Source of the DNA: Bacteroidota bacterium
GTDB lineage: Bacteria > Bacteroidota > Bacteroidia > Chitinophagales > Chitinophagaceae
Length of the DNA: 59,696 nt
Direction of reading: 5' to 3'
Assembly (NCBI GenBank): GCA_003175695.1
Contig: PSRA01000080.1
Coordinates: 1 to 59,696 of the forward strand
The notes beneath the pieces were generated by a model. The model made no database searches. It saw only the letters and a program-made list of their open reading frames with translations, and was not told where the DNA came from. Shown in pieces: positions 50,167 to 58,761 of this stretch. Both the position numbers and the translations under genes were made by a program. Every line of letters starts with the position of its first letter. Position 1 is the stretch's first letter.

Positions 50167-52107
50167 CTAGTAGCTAAGTCCGAATCCAAATTTGTATAGC
50201 GGATCCTTTGAGTCGTATGGTACATCTTCTTTTTGGTTGCGAACAGCTTCCATAGAAGATGGCAGCTCAATCGGCAGGTGACCCCCCGGCTTTGCTTTCC
50301 CAAAAATCACATCCAAAACTGCAGCATCGCTTGCACCAAAATCTGCCATGAGTCCCTTTGATTTAGCACTGATTTCTGGAATAACAGCAGGACGGTCCAA
50401 ATAAATATCGACTATTGTTGGAACGGTATTTAACAATTGCAGTATGCTGTCCTTTGCTGTTCCTTTGAAATCAAGATCACCGTGATGGAACATTCTTGCC
50501 ATCATAATGGGAGATTCAACAGGATAGAATGGCGTATTTAAACGGAGAATTGCGATATCCGCATTTTCCGGTTTGTCGACCACCTGGCCGTATTGCGCTG
50601 CCACGTTGGGGTCCAGGTTTTTCACATATATCTTTAACGTCCCGGCGGTCAGGGGCAGTCTATTTCCATCGTTCTTTAATAGCGTGATCGCTCTTCTTTG
50701 AGCAGCTTCTGCTGCTTTAACAAACTCCTCATTACCGACAGTCCGTTCTGCTTTGTCGACATCCACAAATGGATTATCAAAAAGTCCGAGTTCAAATTTT
50801 TGACGAAGCAGTCTTTTTACTGATTCATCCATTCTTTTTTCACTCAGCCTGCCATCTTTTACCAGCTTGACAACTACTTCAGGTATGTTTTCCCCACCAA
50901 ACTGATCAACGCCGGCATCAATTATTTTCTTAACGCGTTCTTCGGTACTAAGATTTTCAACACCCCATGCGCGTGCAGGCCATACCGATTGGCCCATATG
51001 CGCGTCTGAAACAAGACCCCAATCGGTACAAACGACCCCGTCATAATGGTACTTATTTCTAAGCAGGCCGGTGATGATATCTTTATTATAAGAGAATCCG
51101 ACATTTTCACTCGTTTGATCCATGGGAACGCCATAATAAGGCATGATTGCGGCAGTATTTGCTTTTAATGCTGCTTCAAATGGTATCAAATGGTATTTGA
51201 AATTTTTACCAGGATAGACCTGTCCTTTTTGGAAAGGAAAATGAGGATCCAGTCCTTCTTTTTGCGGGCCACCTCCCGGAAAATGTTTTGTCATACAAGC
51301 CACGCTGTTAGAATCCAGTTTGTTTCCCTGGAAACCGAGAATATATGCAGTGCCCATTTTTGACGAGAGATCAGCATCTTCGCCAAAAGTGCCGGATATC
51401 CGCGGCCACCGGGGTTCTGTTGCAAGGTCCACCTGCGGATGAAGCGCTTCGCGAATTCCGACGGAAACATATTCCTGCCTGGAATCATCTGCGAATTGGC
51501 GGGTTAATTTTTCGTCACCAATGGCTGCGAGCCCCAGCGGTTCTGGCCATTGAGCAAAACTTTTGGCGGTCATGGCAAATATGTTACCTGAGAAATGATT
51601 CCGGGGATCGGAGGCTATGGTAATGGGTATGCCGAGACGCGTGGAATCTTCAGCATATTTTTGCATATTGTCATACCATACCGCCAGGGCTTTAGCTGTG
51701 GGCACCTGCCAAAGATTGAAATGATTCATCTTTTTTTCACGAACCAGTTTGGCTCCGTTAGGGGCGAACGCAAAAAGTCCTTTAGCGGGTTTATCTTCAA
51801 TTGACCCGTCTTCGTTTACTCTCGCCCCGTTGATGAACATCATGCCGGCTTTTTCTTCCAGGGTCATTTGTTTGAGAATATCATTTACTCTCGCCTCTAT
51901 CGGTTGCCTGCTGTCTTCATACACATCCATCTTCCCATTTTTGTTCAAATCACGGAAATGAGTGATGCCTCCTGAGGAAGTATTCACATGCACCAAACCT
52001 GATTGTGAATTTTGTTCTGAATGGGCAATGACTACCCAGGACAAGGTCCCTACAAGAACCACCGGCGCCAGCCCGAAAGCGAGCTTTTTAGCTGATAATT
52101 TTTTCAT
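50167..52107 (-). CDS. Glycoside hydrolase family 3
   Basis: 646 residues from ATG 52107. It has an N-terminal signal-like helix (1-30), an EF-hand-like loop 'DLNKNGKMDVYEDSRQPIEA', then the TIM barrel with 'GVVCTDWGLVSDAHMG' containing the nucleophile Asp and 'CMTKHFPGGGPQKEGLDPH', and the alpha/beta sandwich to the end ('YKFGFGLSY'). It stops there, without the fibronectin III domain often seen. GH3 enzymes release terminal beta-glucose, beta-xylose or arabinofuranose units; next to arabinose genes, an arabino- or xylo-oligosaccharide substrate is likely but unproven. Exported, probably to the periplasm. Confidence 0.9.
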   Translation of the reverse strand: MKKLSAKKLAFGLAPVVLVGTLSWVVIAHSEQNSQSGLVHVNTSSGGITHFRDLNKNGKMDVYEDSRQPIEARVNDILKQMTLEEKAGMMFINGARVNEDGSIEDKPAKGLFAFAPNGAKLVREKKMNHFNLWQVPTAKALAVWYDNMQKYAEDSTRLGIPITIASDPRNHFSGNIFAMTAKSFAQWPEPLGLAAIGDEKLTRQFADDSRQEYVSVGIREALHPQVDLATEPRWPRISGTFGEDADLSSKMGTAYILGFQGNKLDSNSVACMTKHFPGGGPQKEGLDPHFPFQKGQVYPGKNFKYHLIPFEAALKANTAAIMPYYGVPMDQTSENVGFSYNKDIITGLLRNKYHYDGVVCTDWGLVSDAHMGQSVWPARAWGVENLSTEERVKKIIDAGVDQFGGENIPEVVVKLVKDGRLSEKRMDESVKRLLRQKFELGLFDNPFVDVDKAERTVGNEEFVKAAEAAQRRAITLLKNDGNRLPLTAGTLKIYVKNLDPNVAAQYGQVVDKPENADIAILRLNTPFYPVESPIMMARMFHHGDLDFKGTAKDSILQLLNTVPTIVDIYLDRPAVIPEISAKSKGLMADFGASDAAVLDVIFGKAKPGGHLPIELPSSMEAVRNQKEDVPYDSKDPLYKFGFGLSY

Positions 52108-52114
52108 AACTTCA

Positions 52115-52133
52115 TTGTGTCTGTATGACACAA
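52115..52133. promoter_or_regulatory. Putative operator between GH3 and NUDIX-2 genes
   Basis: TTGTGTCTGTATGACACAA is a perfect 7-bp inverted repeat around a 5-nt centre. It lies 8 nt before the GH3 ATG and about 71 nt before the second NUDIX regulator, and shares GTGT-N6-GACAC geometry with the site before araB. It would let one regulator control the divergent pair and the arabinose operon. Confidence 0.6.
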
Positions 52134-53144: not shown

Positions 53145-55805
53145 TTATTGCATTCCCTGCATCGCATCCTGCGAGCCCGAATTATTGAAATTCTTGCGCT
53201 TGAACAGTGACACATCCATTTTTCCAAATCTCCAGGTGAAATTCACTCGCACTAACTGAGGATCACGGAGACGATCATAATCCTGGACAAATGTCGGCCC
53301 TTCGGAATGTTGCTTCGACCAGCGCGTTCTGAAAATATCGCTCACTGCGATGCTCAGTGTTGCCGCATCCTGCTTCAGGAAACTCCTGGATAACGCTGCG
53401 TCAACCGCCCAGAAAGCGGCTATATATCCTTGTGAGGCGCTTGTTGGTGCACCACCACCAGGAGGTCCGAATCCACCACCTCCTGTATTGATTGGCAGGT
53501 TGGTCTTAGATTGATAGATCCCGGTGATCTGCAATTTTAGCTTAGCAGGCAATTTGAAATTGGTATTCAACTTGCCAAACCAGCTCCACAAGGCATTCTG
53601 AGCCTGCTGGCTTAAATTTTCTGTGTTGATCTTGGAATTGTAAATATTCACATTTGCTGTGAGATCCCACCATTTGGTAAGCGTAGTCACAGAGGTAAGT
53701 TCAGCGCCCATCGTCTGACTCGAATTCGCATTTACATATGTATTGATCAACTCTGTTTTTCCGGTGATTGGATTTGGCACAGTGTCGAGGTATCGAGTGA
53801 TCAGGTGGTCAGTGTGCTTGTAATATACAGAGGCCATGATCGTATTATTACCCTTTAGCGTCTTCAAATAGGAAAACTCCAGGGAATTAGTGAACTCCGG
53901 TACCAAATCAGGATTACCCCTGGTGATATTAAGGCTGTCCGTATAATCTGTATAGGGAATCAGCTGGAAAAAGTTCGGACGGTTGATCCTTCTCGTATAA
54001 CTCATTTGCAATTCCTGCTTTTTTCCGAGCTTTTGACTGAGGAACACAGAAGGGAAAAGGCTGATCGGATATACATGACTGAAAGTTTCCTTTGTATTGG
54101 TTAACTCGCCTTTGTAATCAGAACTTTCACCCCGGAGACCCACCTGATAACCAAAATTTCTAATTGCACTTGTAAATGAAACATATCCTGCATATACATC
54201 ATTCGTGTTCTTGTAATTGGTAGATGCAGACGGGACCGGGATGAAAATACCATTGCCCAATGTGTCCAGGTAGTTATATTGATTGTTCACGAGCTGCTGC
54301 GTGTTAAAGCGCACACCGGCTTCCAACTTTGTCTTTGCATTGAAAGGCCTTACATAATCACTTTGTATGGTGATGAATTTGTTGTTTCCATCGCCATCGA
54401 GTTTTTGCTGGCGCAATCCATTCTTGATACTGCCAGGACCGTCAGTATAATAATCCGTGACATAGAGAGATTGGCTGCTATTTTTTCCTGCAAAATAATT
54501 TCCGTCTATAGTGAGTGTTTCACCTTCAGTCGGGAAGAGATGCTTAAATCCAAATTGCAGGCCATTAGCATTAAATTCACGGGTTGAATTGGTGTTTCGC
54601 TGGCTATAATGGGGATTTGTTGCGGAATCGGGATATAAAATAGAAGTATAGATGTCATCTGTTTCGGTTGGTGTAAACCTGCCGTGGACTTTGATCCCTG
54701 ACAAAGAAAACGTTGTGCGGTTGGTCATGAAATAGTCGAATCCGAGGCTTCCAAAAACAAAAGCTCCCTTGTTCTTACTATACACAGATTGATCCACATT
54801 TGTCGGCGTAGCCGGATTTGTATAGTCTGTGCGATTATTTGTTCCTTTTGTTACGCCCCGATTCTGATTCACAAATCCAGCCGCCGTGAAATTGAATTTG
54901 TTTTGTCTCAAATTGAAATTTCCGCCTCCATTAATACCACCGCGGCTATCCACACCAAGACGGAAATTGCCATTATATCCCGTTTTCCTGTTTTTCTTCA
55001 ATACAATATTTAAAATCCCGGCGCTACCGCCTGATGCATCATATTTTGCTGATGGATTTGTGATCACTTCAACACTTTCAATTGCGTCGGCAGGAATTTG
55101 ATCCAAGGTCAATGTCGTAGGTCTGCCGTCAATGTATATTTGCGGTGCCGCATTCCTCAATGTCACATTCCCATCGATGTCAACACTCACTGAAGGAACG
55201 TTTTTCATTACATCCAAAGCGGTTCCTCCTGCATTGACCATATCTTTTTCAACATTGTAAACTTTCTTGTCGATGTCCATCCTGACAGTAGGTTTACTTG
55301 CTGTCACTGTAACAACAGCCAGCTGTTTCATATCCACCGTCATCTTAATGTTTCCCAAATCTTTGTCAACAGAATTGATCATTCCTGACATAGCGTTCAT
55401 CGCCTGTGCCGGATCGCCCGATTGCCTGGCTGCTCCGCCGTTAGCTGGCATTTTCATCTGGAAAGCAACATTTTGCTCAAACACTTTATACCCGGTCGCA
55501 GAAATTTTCAATTTCAAACCTCCGAAAAGAGGAAGTTCTTCGAAATTGAATTCACCATTTGCTTTAGTGCTTAACCCCTTGAAAAGAACATCTTTCCTTT
55601 TCTTAGAAGCGGAATCATATTTATTCTGGAGAAGGATCACTGTTGCATCACTAATAGGATGACCAGCACTGTCGACCACTTTACCGTAGATATGGCCTAT
55701 GTTCGGGATCGATTGACCTTTTCCTCCTGCTCCAGGTGCTGGAAATTGGGCCATCCCTATGAAACCCATTGAAACCAAAGCAGCAAATATTAGCGTCCTT
55801 TTCAT
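53145..55805 (-). CDS. TonB-dependent-receptor-like outer-membrane beta-barrel protein
   Basis: 886 residues. A signal peptide (1-19, ends 'IGMAQ') and a Gly/Pro-rich linker are followed by a CarboxypepD_reg domain (about 36-120; 'GHIYGKVVDSAGHPISDATV'), a plug domain (about 175-265; 'KNVPSVSVDIDGNVTLRNAA', 'QIYIDGRPTTL', 'IESVEVITNPSAKYDASGGS'), and a large beta barrel to the end. This is the OMP_b-brl_3 class, not SusC. It imports or binds an unidentified ligand. Transcription probably depends on the LytTR regulator next door: a direct repeat lies 28 nt ahead of its -7 box. Confidence 0.9.
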   Translation of the reverse strand: MKRTLIFAALVSMGFIGMAQFPAPGAGGKGQSIPNIGHIYGKVVDSAGHPISDATVILLQNKYDSASKKRKDVLFKGLSTKANGEFNFEELPLFGGLKLKISATGYKVFEQNVAFQMKMPANGGAARQSGDPAQAMNAMSGMINSVDKDLGNIKMTVDMKQLAVVTVTASKPTVRMDIDKKVYNVEKDMVNAGGTALDVMKNVPSVSVDIDGNVTLRNAAPQIYIDGRPTTLTLDQIPADAIESVEVITNPSAKYDASGGSAGILNIVLKKNRKTGYNGNFRLGVDSRGGINGGGNFNLRQNKFNFTAAGFVNQNRGVTKGTNNRTDYTNPATPTNVDQSVYSKNKGAFVFGSLGFDYFMTNRTTFSLSGIKVHGRFTPTETDDIYTSILYPDSATNPHYSQRNTNSTREFNANGLQFGFKHLFPTEGETLTIDGNYFAGKNSSQSLYVTDYYTDGPGSIKNGLRQQKLDGDGNNKFITIQSDYVRPFNAKTKLEAGVRFNTQQLVNNQYNYLDTLGNGIFIPVPSASTNYKNTNDVYAGYVSFTSAIRNFGYQVGLRGESSDYKGELTNTKETFSHVYPISLFPSVFLSQKLGKKQELQMSYTRRINRPNFFQLIPYTDYTDSLNITRGNPDLVPEFTNSLEFSYLKTLKGNNTIMASVYYKHTDHLITRYLDTVPNPITGKTELINTYVNANSSQTMGAELTSVTTLTKWWDLTANVNIYNSKINTENLSQQAQNALWSWFGKLNTNFKLPAKLKLQITGIYQSKTNLPINTGGGGFGPPGGGAPTSASQGYIAAFWAVDAALSRSFLKQDAATLSIAVSDIFRTRWSKQHSEGPTFVQDYDRLRDPQLVRVNFTWRFGKMDVSLFKRKNFNNSGSQDAMQGMQ

Positions 55806-55844: not shown

Positions 55845-55909
55845 CAAAAATATTTCGGGAATTGTAAGAATTTCCGAAAATGAGACGAGCGGGTAAAATG
55901 TTGCGACAA
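55845..55909 (-). promoter_or_regulatory. LytTR-type direct repeat plus -7 box, receptor gene
   Basis: Minus strand: distal unit TTGTCGCA (55909-55902), proximal unit TCGTCTCA (55888-55881), start-to-start spacing 21 bp, then exactly 28 nt, then TATTTTTG (55852-55845), a perfect TAnnTTTG -7 box. No -33 TTTG at the right distance, as expected for an activator-dependent promoter. Confidence 0.7.
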
Positions 55910-55990
55910 AATTGAGCCAGACATTACAGGGAACACATGATAAATAAATCTCATTGATGCAGATGACGCCATCTGTGAGATAAACCCGAA

Positions 55991-56710
55991 TTATTTTCCA
56001 TGCTGGCCTATAGCTTGGAGCAGCGCATCTTTGTAATTGTCACTCAAAGGAATCTCCATGGATCCGAGGAAAACAGATCCTTTTCTGATAGAAGAAATTC
56101 GGGGAATCGATATAATATATGATTTATGAACGCGAAGGAATTTTTTAGCCGGTAATTTCTCTTCAATCGATTTCATACTCATTCGGATAACCAACGGCTT
56201 ATTATTGGCCAAATGAATCTTTAAATAATCCTTCAATCCTTCAATAGCTATGATATCATCAATAGCCACCTTGACAAGGCTGTATTCTGCATTCACAAAA
56301 AAATACTCTGGCTCTTTAGAATTCTCAGTTGGAGAATTCGCCTGATTTTTCAACTTAAAAAATTCCCAGGCTTTATTGGTAGCTTTGAAAAATCTCTCGA
56401 ATGACACTGGTTTAACCAGGTAATCGATCACATCAAGACTATAGCCTTCCAGCGCATATTGATTATAGGCAGTAATCAAAATAAACAGTGGCCGGTTGGC
56501 AAGTGACTGGATCAATTGCAAGCCCGTCAATCCTGGCATTTGAATATCCAGGAAGACCAAATCAATTTTCTCTCTTTGTATAATTTCAATTGCTTCGAAG
56601 GCATTCCTGCATTTGGAAACCAGCTGTAAATAAGGAACCTGCCTGATATTGTCTTCAAGCAAATCCAGTGCAAGGGGTTCATCATCTACGGCAAGACATC
56701 GCAACATCAT
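55991..56710 (-). CDS. LytTR-family response regulator
   Basis: 239 residues from ATG 56710, overlapping the kinase stop by 4 nt (another in-frame ATG at 56707). The receiver domain (1-120) has acceptor Asp55 ('IDLVFLDIQMPGLTGLQLIQ') and Lys in 'DYLVKPVSFERF'. The LytTR DNA-binding domain (about 140-235) has 'NAEYSLVKVAIDDIIAIEGL' and 'FLRVHKSYIISIPRISSIRK'. LytTR proteins bind pairs of 9-bp direct repeats; matching repeats occur before three genes of this cluster. Partner of the LytS-type kinase at 56707, and the likely activator of the receptor gene. Confidence 0.93.
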   Translation of the reverse strand: MMLRCLAVDDEPLALDLLEDNIRQVPYLQLVSKCRNAFEAIEIIQREKIDLVFLDIQMPGLTGLQLIQSLANRPLFILITAYNQYALEGYSLDVIDYLVKPVSFERFFKATNKAWEFFKLKNQANSPTENSKEPEYFFVNAEYSLVKVAIDDIIAIEGLKDYLKIHLANNKPLVIRMSMKSIEEKLPAKKFLRVHKSYIISIPRISSIRKGSVFLGSMEIPLSDNYKDALLQAIGQHGK

Positions 56711-57750
56711 TGTAATTTTAATTGAAGGGACGCAATAAACCAACCATTCGATTCTTTCACGGTCAGAGTATGCCGCTGGTCATATAACAAATTTAACCTT
56801 CGCCGGACATTGGAAAGTCCTATACCGGAAGTCTTGTCTTTCAGTTCCTGTGATGCATTCTTGAATTTATTTTTTATTTCGAAATCCAGGACGCCGTTAT
56901 GCACGCGAAGGGAAATATCAATTTCAGGATTCTCAATCAATCCGGTTCCATGTTTAAATGCATTCTCGATAAACGGAATCAGCAACATAGGCTCTATTAG
57001 ATGGTAGTCTTCTTCATCACAAATTTGAACGTTCACCAGGATATCGTTTCCAAAACGCAATTTCTGCAGGTCAATATAGCTGGTGACATATTCTATTTCT
57101 CTTGATAGCGGCACTTTGTCTTCGTCCGACTCGTACAGCATGTATCGCATGAGGCCAGACAGCTTGATCAATGATGGTTCGAGGCGATCAGATTTTAACC
57201 TGGCCAACGCTACCATATTGTTCAACACGTTGAAAAGAAAATGGGGACTCACCTGGGATCTTAAAAACAATAATTCAGTCTTCAGGTTTTCATTTTCTTT
57301 TTCCTTCAGTAACCTTTCTGCTTTTATTTTGTCTGCAGCAAAGCGGTAAAGGGTGGCCATCGCCCACAAAAAGATAAATGGAATGATTGAAAAGAAAAAT
57401 TCACGATGGATATAAGTGCCATGTGCCCTTTTGCCAGAATCAAATAGAAAACTAAGAAAGACCATGAATACTACTAACGTGAGGAATGTAAGTAATACGT
57501 ACTGCCATTTCTTCGTTTTATAAAGGAAAAAGGGAATAAAGTAATAAGCATTCAGGTAGAATATAGCAACTGAAGCAAGAAAGAATCCCACGTGCACCTT
57601 ATTGAACAACGCGTGGCTCCATTCTCCACTTTGGCCTGGTTTGCCAGGTGCAAACAATGGCAACAAGAACACCAGAACCCATGTAAGAATGTGAAAGGCA
57701 ACGACCACCCATCGAATTCTATACCATTGCTTGCGAATTGTTGTTTCCAT
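56707..57750 (-). CDS. LytS-type sensor histidine kinase (His_kinase family)
   Basis: 347 residues from ATG 57750 (a TTG three codons earlier is possible). Four membrane segments near 15-32, 52-72, 83-104 and 119-137, then a short coiled coil and the His_kinase domain with His170 in 'LFLRSQVSPHFLFNVLNNMV', and HATPase-like 'IPFIENAFKHGTG' and 'GIGLSNVRRRLNLLYD'. It senses an unknown signal in the membrane and phosphorylates the downstream LytTR regulator. Promoter region carries the same repeat as two neighbouring genes; the -7-like box ends only 7 nt before the ATG, so the mRNA may be nearly leaderless. Confidence 0.92.
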   Translation of the reverse strand: METTIRKQWYRIRWVVVAFHILTWVLVFLLPLFAPGKPGQSGEWSHALFNKVHVGFFLASVAIFYLNAYYFIPFFLYKTKKWQYVLLTFLTLVVFMVFLSFLFDSGKRAHGTYIHREFFFSIIPFIFLWAMATLYRFAADKIKAERLLKEKENENLKTELLFLRSQVSPHFLFNVLNNMVALARLKSDRLEPSLIKLSGLMRYMLYESDEDKVPLSREIEYVTSYIDLQKLRFGNDILVNVQICDEEDYHLIEPMLLIPFIENAFKHGTGLIENPEIDISLRVHNGVLDFEIKNKFKNASQELKDKTSGIGLSNVRRRLNLLYDQRHTLTVKESNGWFIASLQLKLQ

Positions 57751-57756
57751 ATTTTG

Positions 57757-57821
57757 CAAAATTGATCAATAAATCCTTGCCGAAATGAACGTTGCGACGA
57801 ACTGCCCTCATGTGCCGACAC
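57757..57821 (-). promoter_or_regulatory. LytTR-type direct repeat plus -7-like box, kinase/regulator operon
   Basis: Minus strand: distal unit GTGTCGGC (57821-57814, the weaker one), proximal unit TCGTCGCA (57800-57793), 21 bp start-to-start, 28 nt, then CAATTTTG (57764-57757), one mismatch from TAnnTTTG. Spacing is identical to the receptor and LolA-like promoters. Suggests autoregulation of the two-component system. Confidence 0.55.
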
Positions 57822-57921
57822 ATTTTTGCCAATTGCACCTTCAAAATAAAAATCGGAAGGCAGGTTGAACAAAAATTCTTGGCGCTTCACCCCCCTTCCG
57901 ATTTATACCGGTAACCGGCCG

Positions 57922-58635
57922 CTATTTTGTCATCTCAAATATCTTCGGATCTACATCTTTATTTGTCTCAATCTTCTTAACATTTTGAGTAATATTGAAC
58001 TGACCCCCGTAGCTGATATCTACTGTATAGGGGTAAAGTAACCCGAAATCCGTTTTCTGGAAATTCGAAAAGGTTCTTGTTATTTCCATTTCCTGTCCCA
58101 TCATACTGCCGGTTTGAATAGACTTGGTGATAAGATAAGTTTTCGGATCAATATAAATTGTCGTTACAACTCCATCTTTGTTCGTCACCTTCAATCTGTA
58201 CGCACTGTCTTCTTTTCCCAGTAATTCAACCTTACTTCCTTTAGCTGCATAATTATAGAGTGGGCCTCCGATATCTATCTGGTCTTTACCAGCTTTATAT
58301 TGATCGTCCGGCATTGCCTGCGGATCGGGACTTCCAGCCATCGGATTAATTGCCCATCCTGCCTTATCCGTAAAAACCTGAACCATCTTCTGGCCATTGA
58401 AGTCGGATTCCATTCTAAGCCCTTTTCCATTCAATATAGTAAGCGTGCTGGGTGCATCATTGCCCATCACCTGCACTGTAGATTCCGAATACATCGATTT
58501 TATCTTATCGATTTTATCTTTACCTCCGATGGCATCAAAATGTTTATTGATTATCTCATCAGCCGTTTGGGCCTTTGATACCAAAAAGGCAGTCAAAGCC
58601 AATGCGAACAACATGCTTTGTTTTACAATTTTCAT
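57922..58635 (-). CDS. Periplasmic LolA-like (outer membrane lipoprotein-sorting) protein
   Basis: 237 residues with a signal peptide (1-22, ends 'VSKAQ'). The mature region has the LolA/LppX-like unclosed barrel pattern with 'INKHFDAIGGKDKIDKIKSM', repeated strands such as 'STLTILNGKGLRMESDFNGQ', 'SAYRLKVTNKDGVVTTIYID', and 'YLITKSIQTGSMMGQEMEIT'. Annotated in relatives as outer membrane lipoprotein-sorting proteins, although true LolA function is not shown for this group. It is part of the neighbouring LytTR regulon by its promoter sequence. Confidence 0.8.
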   Translation of the reverse strand: MKIVKQSMLFALALTAFLVSKAQTADEIINKHFDAIGGKDKIDKIKSMYSESTVQVMGNDAPSTLTILNGKGLRMESDFNGQKMVQVFTDKAGWAINPMAGSPDPQAMPDDQYKAGKDQIDIGGPLYNYAAKGSKVELLGKEDSAYRLKVTNKDGVVTTIYIDPKTYLITKSIQTGSMMGQEMEITRTFSNFQKTDFGLLYPYTVDISYGGQFNITQNVKKIETNKDVDPKIFEMTK

Positions 58636-58696
58636 TTTTTGAATTTTATTAAGAGTGATTGAACAAGTGAGATTGATCTCAGTTCTTGCTACTAAT

Positions 58697-58761
58697 CAAA
58701 TCTAAAATAACAGCCACATTGGATCCGAAAAATGAGACGAAACCCTCAAATATTGCGACGA
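58697..58761 (-). promoter_or_regulatory. LytTR-type direct repeat plus -7 box, LolA-like gene
   Basis: Minus strand: distal unit TCGTCGCA (58761-58754), proximal unit TCGTCTCA (58740-58733), 21 bp start-to-start, 28 nt, then TAGATTTG (58704-58697), a perfect TAnnTTTG box. Both repeat units agree with the receptor-gene site in 7 of 8 and 8 of 8 positions. Confidence 0.7.

What the first reader, a model, noticed from the sequence alone, without database searches (positions are those of the whole stretch)
55845..58761. Three promoters of one cluster share a direct repeat at fixed distance from the -7 box (LytTR regulon)
Minus-strand promoters of the outer-membrane receptor, the LytS-type kinase/LytTR regulator operon and the LolA-like gene each carry two units of TCGTCKCA type, start-to-start 21 bp, and the proximal unit ends exactly 28 nt before a TAnnTTTG (or CAATTTTG) -7 box. 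LytTR regulators are known to bind 9-bp direct repeats spaced about two helical turns. Equal phasing in three places is hard to get by chance. This defines a self-contained, autoregulated signalling unit: sensor, regulator, barrel receptor and periplasmic lipid/lipoprotein-type protein. The target repeat and its link to this receptor/LolA pair appear undescribed to me, and should be checked.
Basis: partly seen in the sequence, partly recalled or inferred. Interest (0 to 1): 0.85.

Follow-up and report, generated by a model that had tools for sequence, protein, structure and literature searches.

The report
Conserved LytTR operator controlling envelope genes
A pair of short repeated DNA words sits at a fixed distance in front of several cell-envelope genes in this Bacteroidota genome and in many relatives, and is most likely the switch by which a LytTR two-component regulator controls those genes and itself.

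Summary
The repeats are real, phased and conserved. In the window, the receptor and LolA-like promoters each carry TNGTCKCA-N13-TNGTCKCA ending exactly 28 nt before a TAnnTTTG box. The kinase promoter has a good proximal unit only; the distal one matches 4 of 8. Among 120 repeat pairs found in family genomes without regard to any promoter, an exact TAnnTTTG lies 28 or 29 nt downstream in 43 and at other distances (5-59 nt) in 6. The full pattern occurs 45 times in 41 of 394 genomes; the reversed control never. 36 of 45 sites precede a homologue of the same outer-membrane receptor. All 41 genomes hold a close LytTR regulator. Kinase operons often keep a weaker site, which suggests autoregulation. 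The regulon is not confined to the cluster: the only other exact pair in this genome precedes a YceI gene, and close YceI orthologues keep it. Spacing and position match known LytTR operators; the half-site, its fixed order and this regulon did not appear in the listings of nine literature searches. Verdict: a well-supported new LytTR operator and regulon of a known kind. Binding, sign of regulation and signal are untested.

The parts
55902..55909 (-). distal half-site of receptor operator, TTGTCGCA
55881..55888 (-). proximal half-site of receptor operator, TCGTCTCA
55845..55852 (-). -7 box TATTTTTG of receptor promoter, 28 nt after proximal unit
53145..55805 (-). outer-membrane receptor (886 aa): CarboxypepD_reg, Plug, OMP_b-brl_3
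   Evidence: PF14905 E 1.9e-92
57814..57821 (-). degenerate distal half-site of kinase operator, GTGTCGGC (4 of 8)
57793..57800 (-). proximal half-site of kinase operator, TCGTCGCA
57757..57764 (-). -7 box CAATTTTG (one letter off) of kinase promoter; ends 6 nt before the ATG, so the mRNA is predicted to be nearly leaderless
   Evidence: relatives
56707..57750 (-). LytS-type sensor kinase (PF06580 His_kinase, HATPase_c_5)
55991..56710 (-). response regulator, Response_reg + LytTR
58754..58761 (-). distal half-site of LolA-like operator, TCGTCGCA
58733..58740 (-). proximal half-site of LolA-like operator, TCGTCTCA
58697..58704 (-). -7 box TAGATTTG of LolA-like promoter, 28 nt after proximal unit
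57922..58635 (-). LolA-fold protein (237 aa; signal peptide by reading, not computed)

Best explanation
The repeats are the operator of the LytTR response regulator encoded in the same cluster. The membrane kinase senses a signal (unknown, probably of the envelope) and phosphorylates the regulator; two regulator molecules bind the two half-sites, which lie on one face of the helix two turns apart, and, from a fixed position just upstream of the core promoter, help the primary-sigma RNA polymerase at TAnnTTTG promoters. Targets: the outer-membrane receptor (core, conserved target), the kinase-regulator operon itself through a weaker site (feedback), and in some lineages a LolA-fold protein and a YceI-family protein. 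Shown by sequence comparison: the operator, its phasing, its targets and its co-occurrence with the regulator. Inferred: binding by this regulator, phosphorylation, activation rather than repression, the envelope signal.
For: Spacing 21 enriched 16 to 0-2 in 58 loci. Fixed 28-29 nt to TAnnTTTG in 120 pairs chosen without regard to a box. 45 full-pattern sites in 41 of 394 genomes and 20 of 101 genera, reversed control zero in every row; 36 of 45 precede the receptor by 54-85 nt. Positions outside the search pattern are conserved too: T before the distal unit 41 of 45, TTT at positions 11-13 counted from the distal unit's start 41, 43 and 40 of 45, TTT right after the proximal unit 35, 40 and 44 of 45. 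All 41 genomes have a regulator match at E <= 1e-60 against 185 of 394 overall (hypergeometric 2.5e-15, not corrected for relatedness). The receptor keeps the operator where unlinked: in G141, on one 5.5-Mb contig, the best regulator match is 237 kb from the site. Kinase promoters keep a site (9 of 21 unselected; 40 of 47 in mostly pair-selected loci). A few more distant LytTR loci use other letters in the same layout: TTCGTAG/TTGGTAGA 21 bp apart (L090, L098) and TGGTCTAT/TGGTCTAC 20 bp apart (L100, L101, L103), box at 28-29 nt. LytTR regulators are reported to bind two imperfect repeats about 12 bp apart (PMC4064291, passages) just upstream of the core promoter (PMC6193735, passages).
Against: No binding, expression or start-site data. 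Window-only and own-genome statistics are weak. 75 of the 120 exact pairs have no exact box at 27-30 nt, and 35 of those have no gene start within 90 nt, so many bare pairs are chance or belong to other regulators; the bare pair is only about 2.5 times commoner than its reversed control (136 to 55, counted by me). Kinase promoters of L056, L057, L060-L063 and L065-L067 (41-53% identity or so) show no recognisable pair, nor does the receptor promoter of L061. Eight of the 45 full-pattern sites precede neither receptor, kinase nor LolA-like gene, two of them because the contig ends. In the scan of paralogue loci a spacing of 20 was as common as 21 (6 against 5 loci). The genome is 78.8% complete.
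Confidence: 0.86

Rival explanations
1. The sites are bound mainly by another, paralogous LytTR regulator (the genome has about 20 near-full-length matches to this regulator), and this pair only sits beside its targets.
For: One search lists 32 matches to the regulator in this genome; similar half-sites occur before genes near other regulators (efflux operons in L144 and L157; a propeller kinase next to a receiver protein with a weak HTH_18 match in L241).
Against: The pair's own promoter often carries the site; every genome with the full pattern has a close relative of this regulator; 17 fetched stretches around own-genome paralogues showed no GT-core pair with a box in the scan, and some other LytTR loci use other letters.
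Confidence: 0.08
2. Same binder, opposite sign: the regulator represses these promoters, so the fixed distance reflects exclusion of polymerase rather than contact with it.
For: Sign cannot be read from sequence; repression by LytTR proteins is known (PlnD, abstract start in the listing).
Against: The sites lie upstream of the core promoter, at about -41 to -70, not over it; the 28/29-nt phase is rigid, and in kinase promoters the alternative register is about one helical turn further (box end at 36-37 or 44-47 nt), as expected for contact with polymerase.
Confidence: 0.05
3. The repeats are chance or a by-product of promoter composition.
For: Window-only and own-genome counts are close to controls.
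Against:: conservation over 20 genera with zero in the control.
Confidence: 0.01

Closest known systems
LytTR direct-repeat operators (AgrA of S. aureus, HdrR/BrsR of S. mutans and relatives)
   Same: two half-sites with start-to-start about 21 bp, immediately upstream of the core promoter, autoregulation
   Different: half-site TTYGTCKCA instead of the ACCACTTAT type (PMC6193735, passages) or ACAGTTAAG (AgrA, recalled); TAnnTTTG core promoter; targets are envelope proteins
AlgR sites of Pseudomonas (CCGTTCGTC, PMC4064291, passages)
   Same: share the six letters TTCGTC; LytTR regulator
   Different: AlgR sites are not necessarily paired 12 bp apart and may be far from the start; here a close-set pair at fixed phase
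Predicted Bacteroides LRS-like operons (PMC6193735 Table 3, passages: 11-bp repeats, 11-bp gap, 11 bp upstream of TGTA-19-TATCTTTG)
   Same: Bacteroidota, LytTR-type repeats just upstream of a TAnnTTTG promoter
   Different: those regulators have transmembrane segments and pair with a membrane protein, not a kinase; other half-site, 22-bp period
BtsS/BtsR and YpdA/YpdB of E. coli
   Same: LytS kinase plus LytTR regulator; NCBIfam BtsR is the best family hit of the regulator, far below its cut-off (124.8 against 246 bits)
   Different: targets are transporters (PMC5552118, passages); no receptor or LolA-fold partner

Membership tests
LytS/LytTR two-component system | Response regulator with receiver and LytTR domains | tested here: met
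   PF00072 E 2.6e-19, PF04397 E 8.3e-19, both above cut-off
LytS/LytTR two-component system | Kinase with PF06580 and GHKL ATPase domain, adjacent | tested here: met
   PF06580 E 6.8e-24, PF14501 E 6.1e-5; genes overlap by 4 bp
LytTR direct-repeat operator | Two imperfect repeats of about 9 bp separated by about 12 bp | tested here: met
   start-to-start 21
LytTR direct-repeat operator | Repeats immediately upstream of core promoter at fixed phase | tested here: met
   28-29 nt before TAnnTTTG
LytTR direct-repeat operator | Half-site fits the published LytTR consensus | tested here: inconclusive
   shares TTCGTC with AlgR CCGTTCGTC; the general consensus is recalled and fits only the central GT
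LytTR direct-repeat operator | Bound by the cognate regulator | not testable with these tools
   needs gel shift or footprint
LytTR Regulatory System (LRS) | LytTR regulator without receiver domain plus membrane inhibitor | tested here: not met
   receiver domain and kinase present; definition from PMC6193735 (passages)
LolA superfamily | LolA/LolB fold | tested here: met
   model pLDDT 88.3; best PDB match 3buu (LolA superfamily) E 2.9e-10, TM 0.59/0.62; P. gingivalis LolA3 9tp6 and LolB 9tpm also listed
LolA superfamily | Pfam or NCBIfam family by sequence | tested here: not met
   no Pfam family at E 0.001; no NCBIfam family at 0.01
LolA superfamily | Carries lipoproteins to the outer membrane | not testable with these tools
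   needs experiment

The most novel reading that the evidence does not exclude
This is the first operator defined for a large, little-characterised class of Bacteroidota LytTR systems, and it reveals a general grammar: an ordered, asymmetric pair (GTCGCA distal, GTCTCA proximal) locked 28-29 nt from the -7 box, with clade-specific letters in a shared layout; a sensor operon that makes leaderless mRNA and whose promoter moves relative to the operator only by about one helical turn; and a dedicated envelope-lipid or envelope-stress regulon (barrel receptor, LolA-fold protein, YceI, small PepSY-like proteins, in some lineages efflux).
Probability: 0.35. Interest if true: 0.68.

Novelty: new member of a known kind. 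Interest (0 to 1): 0.52.

Why it matters
This genome alone has about 20 near-full-length matches to the regulator, and none of my nine literature listings showed an experimentally defined operator for a Bacteroidota LytTR response regulator.

Tried and rejected
Chance: rejected. Window-only shuffles and the own-genome reversed-pattern control were weak and by themselves would not have supported the finding.

Other LytTR loci (17 stretches around own-genome paralogues and L056-L104): a scan for GT-core repeats with a box gave nothing in the 17 own-genome stretches; at spacing 21 hits came from L063, L068, L090, L095, L098, and spacing 20 was as common (6 loci). A looser scan at spacing 20 gave L077, L087, L093, L096, L100, L101, L103, and at 21 also L057 and a second site in L090. 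A still more general scan mixed real with evident chance hits. So a family-wide grammar rests on few loci.

PepSY-like genes as a general target: of 30 loci brought in by the L173 protein only one has a pair at no more than 3 mismatches, and that is the query's own locus. The label itself is weak: two of the four small proteins first scanned match PepSY_like below Pfam's cut-off and the others match nothing.

YceI as a general target: 3 of 30 loci, but these are 3 of the 4 closest (60-100% identity); the fourth (G120, 61%) lies beside the regulator gene.

A -33 element: no column from 10 to 24 nt before the box exceeds 0.3 bits, but in F. johnsoniae the -33 element is weak anyway (PMC6847099, passages), so this does not show that the activator replaces it. 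NCBIfam gave no useful name for receptor, kinase or LolA-like protein. Literature: nine searches; I saw listings, and passages of PMC10197871, PMC4064291, PMC4227749, PMC5552118, PMC11885536, PMC6193735, PMC6222199, PMC9723704 and PMC6847099, no whole paper. Most subscription papers are not held.
Full report
WHAT IS THERE. All genes run on the minus strand: LolA-like gene (58635-57922), sensor kinase (57750-56707), LytTR response regulator (56710-55991), outer-membrane receptor (55805-53145). Pfam: receptor CarboxypepD_reg, Plug and OMP_b-brl_3; regulator Response_reg and LytTR; kinase His_kinase PF06580 and HATPase_c_5; the LolA-like protein has no Pfam family.

THE OBSERVATION. The receptor and LolA-like promoters hold the repeat pair exactly as described, 28 nt before TATTTTTG and TAGATTTG. 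The kinase promoter has a perfect proximal unit 28 nt before CAATTTTG but a distal unit with 4 of 8 letters. Window shuffles and the own-genome control alone do not make this compelling.

CONSERVATION. A search for relatives of the kinase gave 58 loci from public genomes; several of the closest are named Chitinophagaceae, from which I infer the window's family. In them, pairs of TCGTCKCA at no more than 2 mismatches occur 16 times at spacing 21 and 0-2 times at every other spacing from 9 to 44. The strict pattern TNGTCKCA-N13-TNGTCKCA-N27-30-TANNTTTG was then run on 394 whole genomes of the family: 45 matches in 41 genomes and 20 of 101 genera, with zero in the reversed-pattern control columns. 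Distances are 28 (22 sites), 29 (21) and 30 (2).

PHASE TEST WITHOUT A BOX. The pair alone gave matches in 99 of 394 genomes; I count 136 rows against 55 control matches in the table. Fifteen rows from two genomes (G314, G199) were dropped without being fetched: 11 of them lie at multiples of 21 bp from one another, that is in tandem arrays, and 4 are single rows with similar letters. One more (G000:C209) was looked at apart. For the remaining 120, exact TANNTTTG is found at 28 nt (22), 29 (21), 30 (2), 31 (3) and 56 (1), and at no other distance from 5 to 59; with one mismatch allowed there are 32 at 28 and 29 at 29, 3 at 30, 9 at 31 and 0-4 elsewhere. By the numbering of F. johnsoniae promoters (box -12 to -5, start 4-5 nt after it; PMC6847099, passages) the proximal unit ends at about -41 or -42 and the distal unit begins near -69 or -70.

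TARGETS. Of the 45 strict sites 36 precede a receptor homologue by 54-85 nt; one is the window's LolA-like gene; eight are other: a small protein with a weak PepSY-like match (L166), efflux outer-membrane proteins (L144, L157), DUF1801 (L143), an SprB-repeat protein (L145), a chromate transporter 444 nt away (L156) and two at contig ends (L142, L177). In nine of the 36 my simple gene caller did not see the regulator in the fetched stretch. In G141, a single 5.5-Mb contig, the best regulator match is 237 kb away, so the receptor keeps the operator without linkage; in G058 the two are on different large contigs. G242 looks like an assembly break, in G361 and G127 the regulator lies 5-8 kb from the site, and G183, G338, G312 and G300 are drafts where linkage cannot be judged. 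Among the 75 pairs without an exact box, 11 precede a receptor and 8 a kinase within 90 nt, 21 another gene, and 35 nothing.

A FOURTH TARGET IN THIS GENOME. The only other exact pair in the genome, G000:C209:18206-18234, lies 60 nt upstream of a YceI-family gene (PF04264 E 1e-32), with TACTTTCA, two letters off the box, at 28 nt. Of the four closest YceI genes in 147 genomes, G112 (72%) has a pair with one mismatch and an exact box at 29, G127 (60%) one with three mismatches and an exact box at 29 (113 nt from the start codon), and G120 (61%) lies beside the regulator gene; the remaining 26 of 30 loci, at most 55% identical, lack the pair. A YceI gene in G362 has an exact pair with a box one letter off at 29 (L213), and in L135 and L137 a YceI gene lies next to the regulator gene. 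So YceI belongs to the regulon in some lineages, and 'self-contained' needs correction. The genome is 78.8% complete, so further targets may be missing.

CO-OCCURRENCE. All 41 genomes with the strict site have a regulator match at E <= 1e-60, against 185 of 394 overall (hypergeometric 2.5e-15, relatedness not corrected).

ANATOMY OF THE OPERATOR. The two half-sites are not equal: the K position is G in 45 of 45 distal units and T in 40 of 45 proximal units; each is followed by conserved T runs not demanded by the pattern. In kinase promoters the pattern differs: mostly a strong TCGTCGCA-like proximal unit and a weaker distal one. In loci found by kinase homology alone, 9 of 21 kinase promoters (L047-L067, window apart) have a TCGTCKCA pair with no more than 3 mismatches; shuffled promoters reach that in 0.1%. 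In loci mostly fetched because they hold a pair, 40 of 47 distinct kinase promoters do so for TNGTCKCA. There the box lies in two registers: end of TAn(1-2)TTTG at 36-37 nt (7 of 21 with a box) or 44-47 nt (14 of 21), and in most the start codon moves with it (42-43 or 50-51 nt), leaving exactly 5 nt between box and ATG in 16 of 21; 18 of 39 promoters had no recognisable box. By the F. johnsoniae rule such mRNAs would be leaderless; in F. psychrophilum leaderless mRNAs are 5.5% (PMC9723704, passage). Receptor mRNAs would have a short leader (19-21 nt between box and ATG in 21 of the 38 with a box, of 50).

OTHER CLADES. L090 and L098 have TTCGTAG/TTGGTAGA units 21 bp apart before their own kinase, exact box at 28-29. 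L093, L096, L100, L101 and L103 have TGGTMTAY-type units (one is TAGTCTAT) 20 bp apart before a gene of 150-182 aa, with a box one letter off at 28. Their LytTR domains differ from the window's in a one-residue loop length and in the strand after the FhRhHKS stretch (read from the alignment). I read this as one layout with clade-specific letters; it rests on few loci.

MECHANISM. A LytS-type kinase and its LytTR regulator use a two-turn direct repeat upstream of primary-sigma promoters and probably activate them. The position agrees with the rules that LytTR repeats are about 12 bp apart (PMC4064291, passages) and about 10 bp upstream of the -35 element in LRS promoters (PMC6193735, passages). 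The half-site shares TTCGTC with AlgR's CCGTTCGTC. Binding, phosphorylation, sign and signal are inferred. The targets (barrel, LolA-fold, YceI) point to envelope or lipid homeostasis; this is a guess from families.

NOVELTY. The kind is known; PMC6193735 even lists predicted LytTR-type repeats before Bacteroides promoters (other half-site, 22-bp period, regulators of another build). The half-site, its order and this regulon did not appear in the listings of nine searches. I therefore file it as a new member of a known kind, unusually well supported by comparison.

Noticed in passing
window 57764-57748 and kinase promoters of relatives: The -7 box ends 6 nt before the kinase ATG, so the sensor-regulator mRNA should be nearly leaderless; 16 of 21 relatives' kinase promoters with a box (of 39 examined) have exactly 5 nt.
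   Followed up: partly
G000:C209:18206-18234 (L015, L271): Exact repeat pair 60 nt upstream of a YceI-family gene in the same genome: an unlinked extra regulon member.
   Followed up: yes
window 50167-52131; L135 277-2598; L267 5715-8102: A glycoside hydrolase family 3 gene lies near or beside this cluster in three places where I scanned it; its promoters were not examined.
   Followed up: no
L144 6006 onward, L157 6065 onward: The same operator layout precedes efflux genes (OEP in both; HlyD and ABC scanned in L144, MacB in L157) near a related kinase.
   Followed up: partly
L241, L260, L221, L253, L259: A similar pair, roughly TCGTCTCA-TTnTTTCnnCAAT-TCGTCTCA, stands before genes of about 1055-1078 aa; the one scanned (L241) is a propeller-type sensor kinase followed by a receiver protein with a weak HTH_18 match; no -7 box at 27-30 nt with fewer than 2 mismatches.
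   Followed up: partly
L093, L096, L100, L101, L103: A second LytTR clade has TGGTCTAC-like repeats 20 bp apart before a 150-182 aa gene, box one letter off at 28 nt.
   Followed up: partly
G314 C8 and C31, G199 C5 and C10: Tandem 21-bp arrays that match the pair by repetition; dropped from the counts, not fetched or examined.
   Followed up: no
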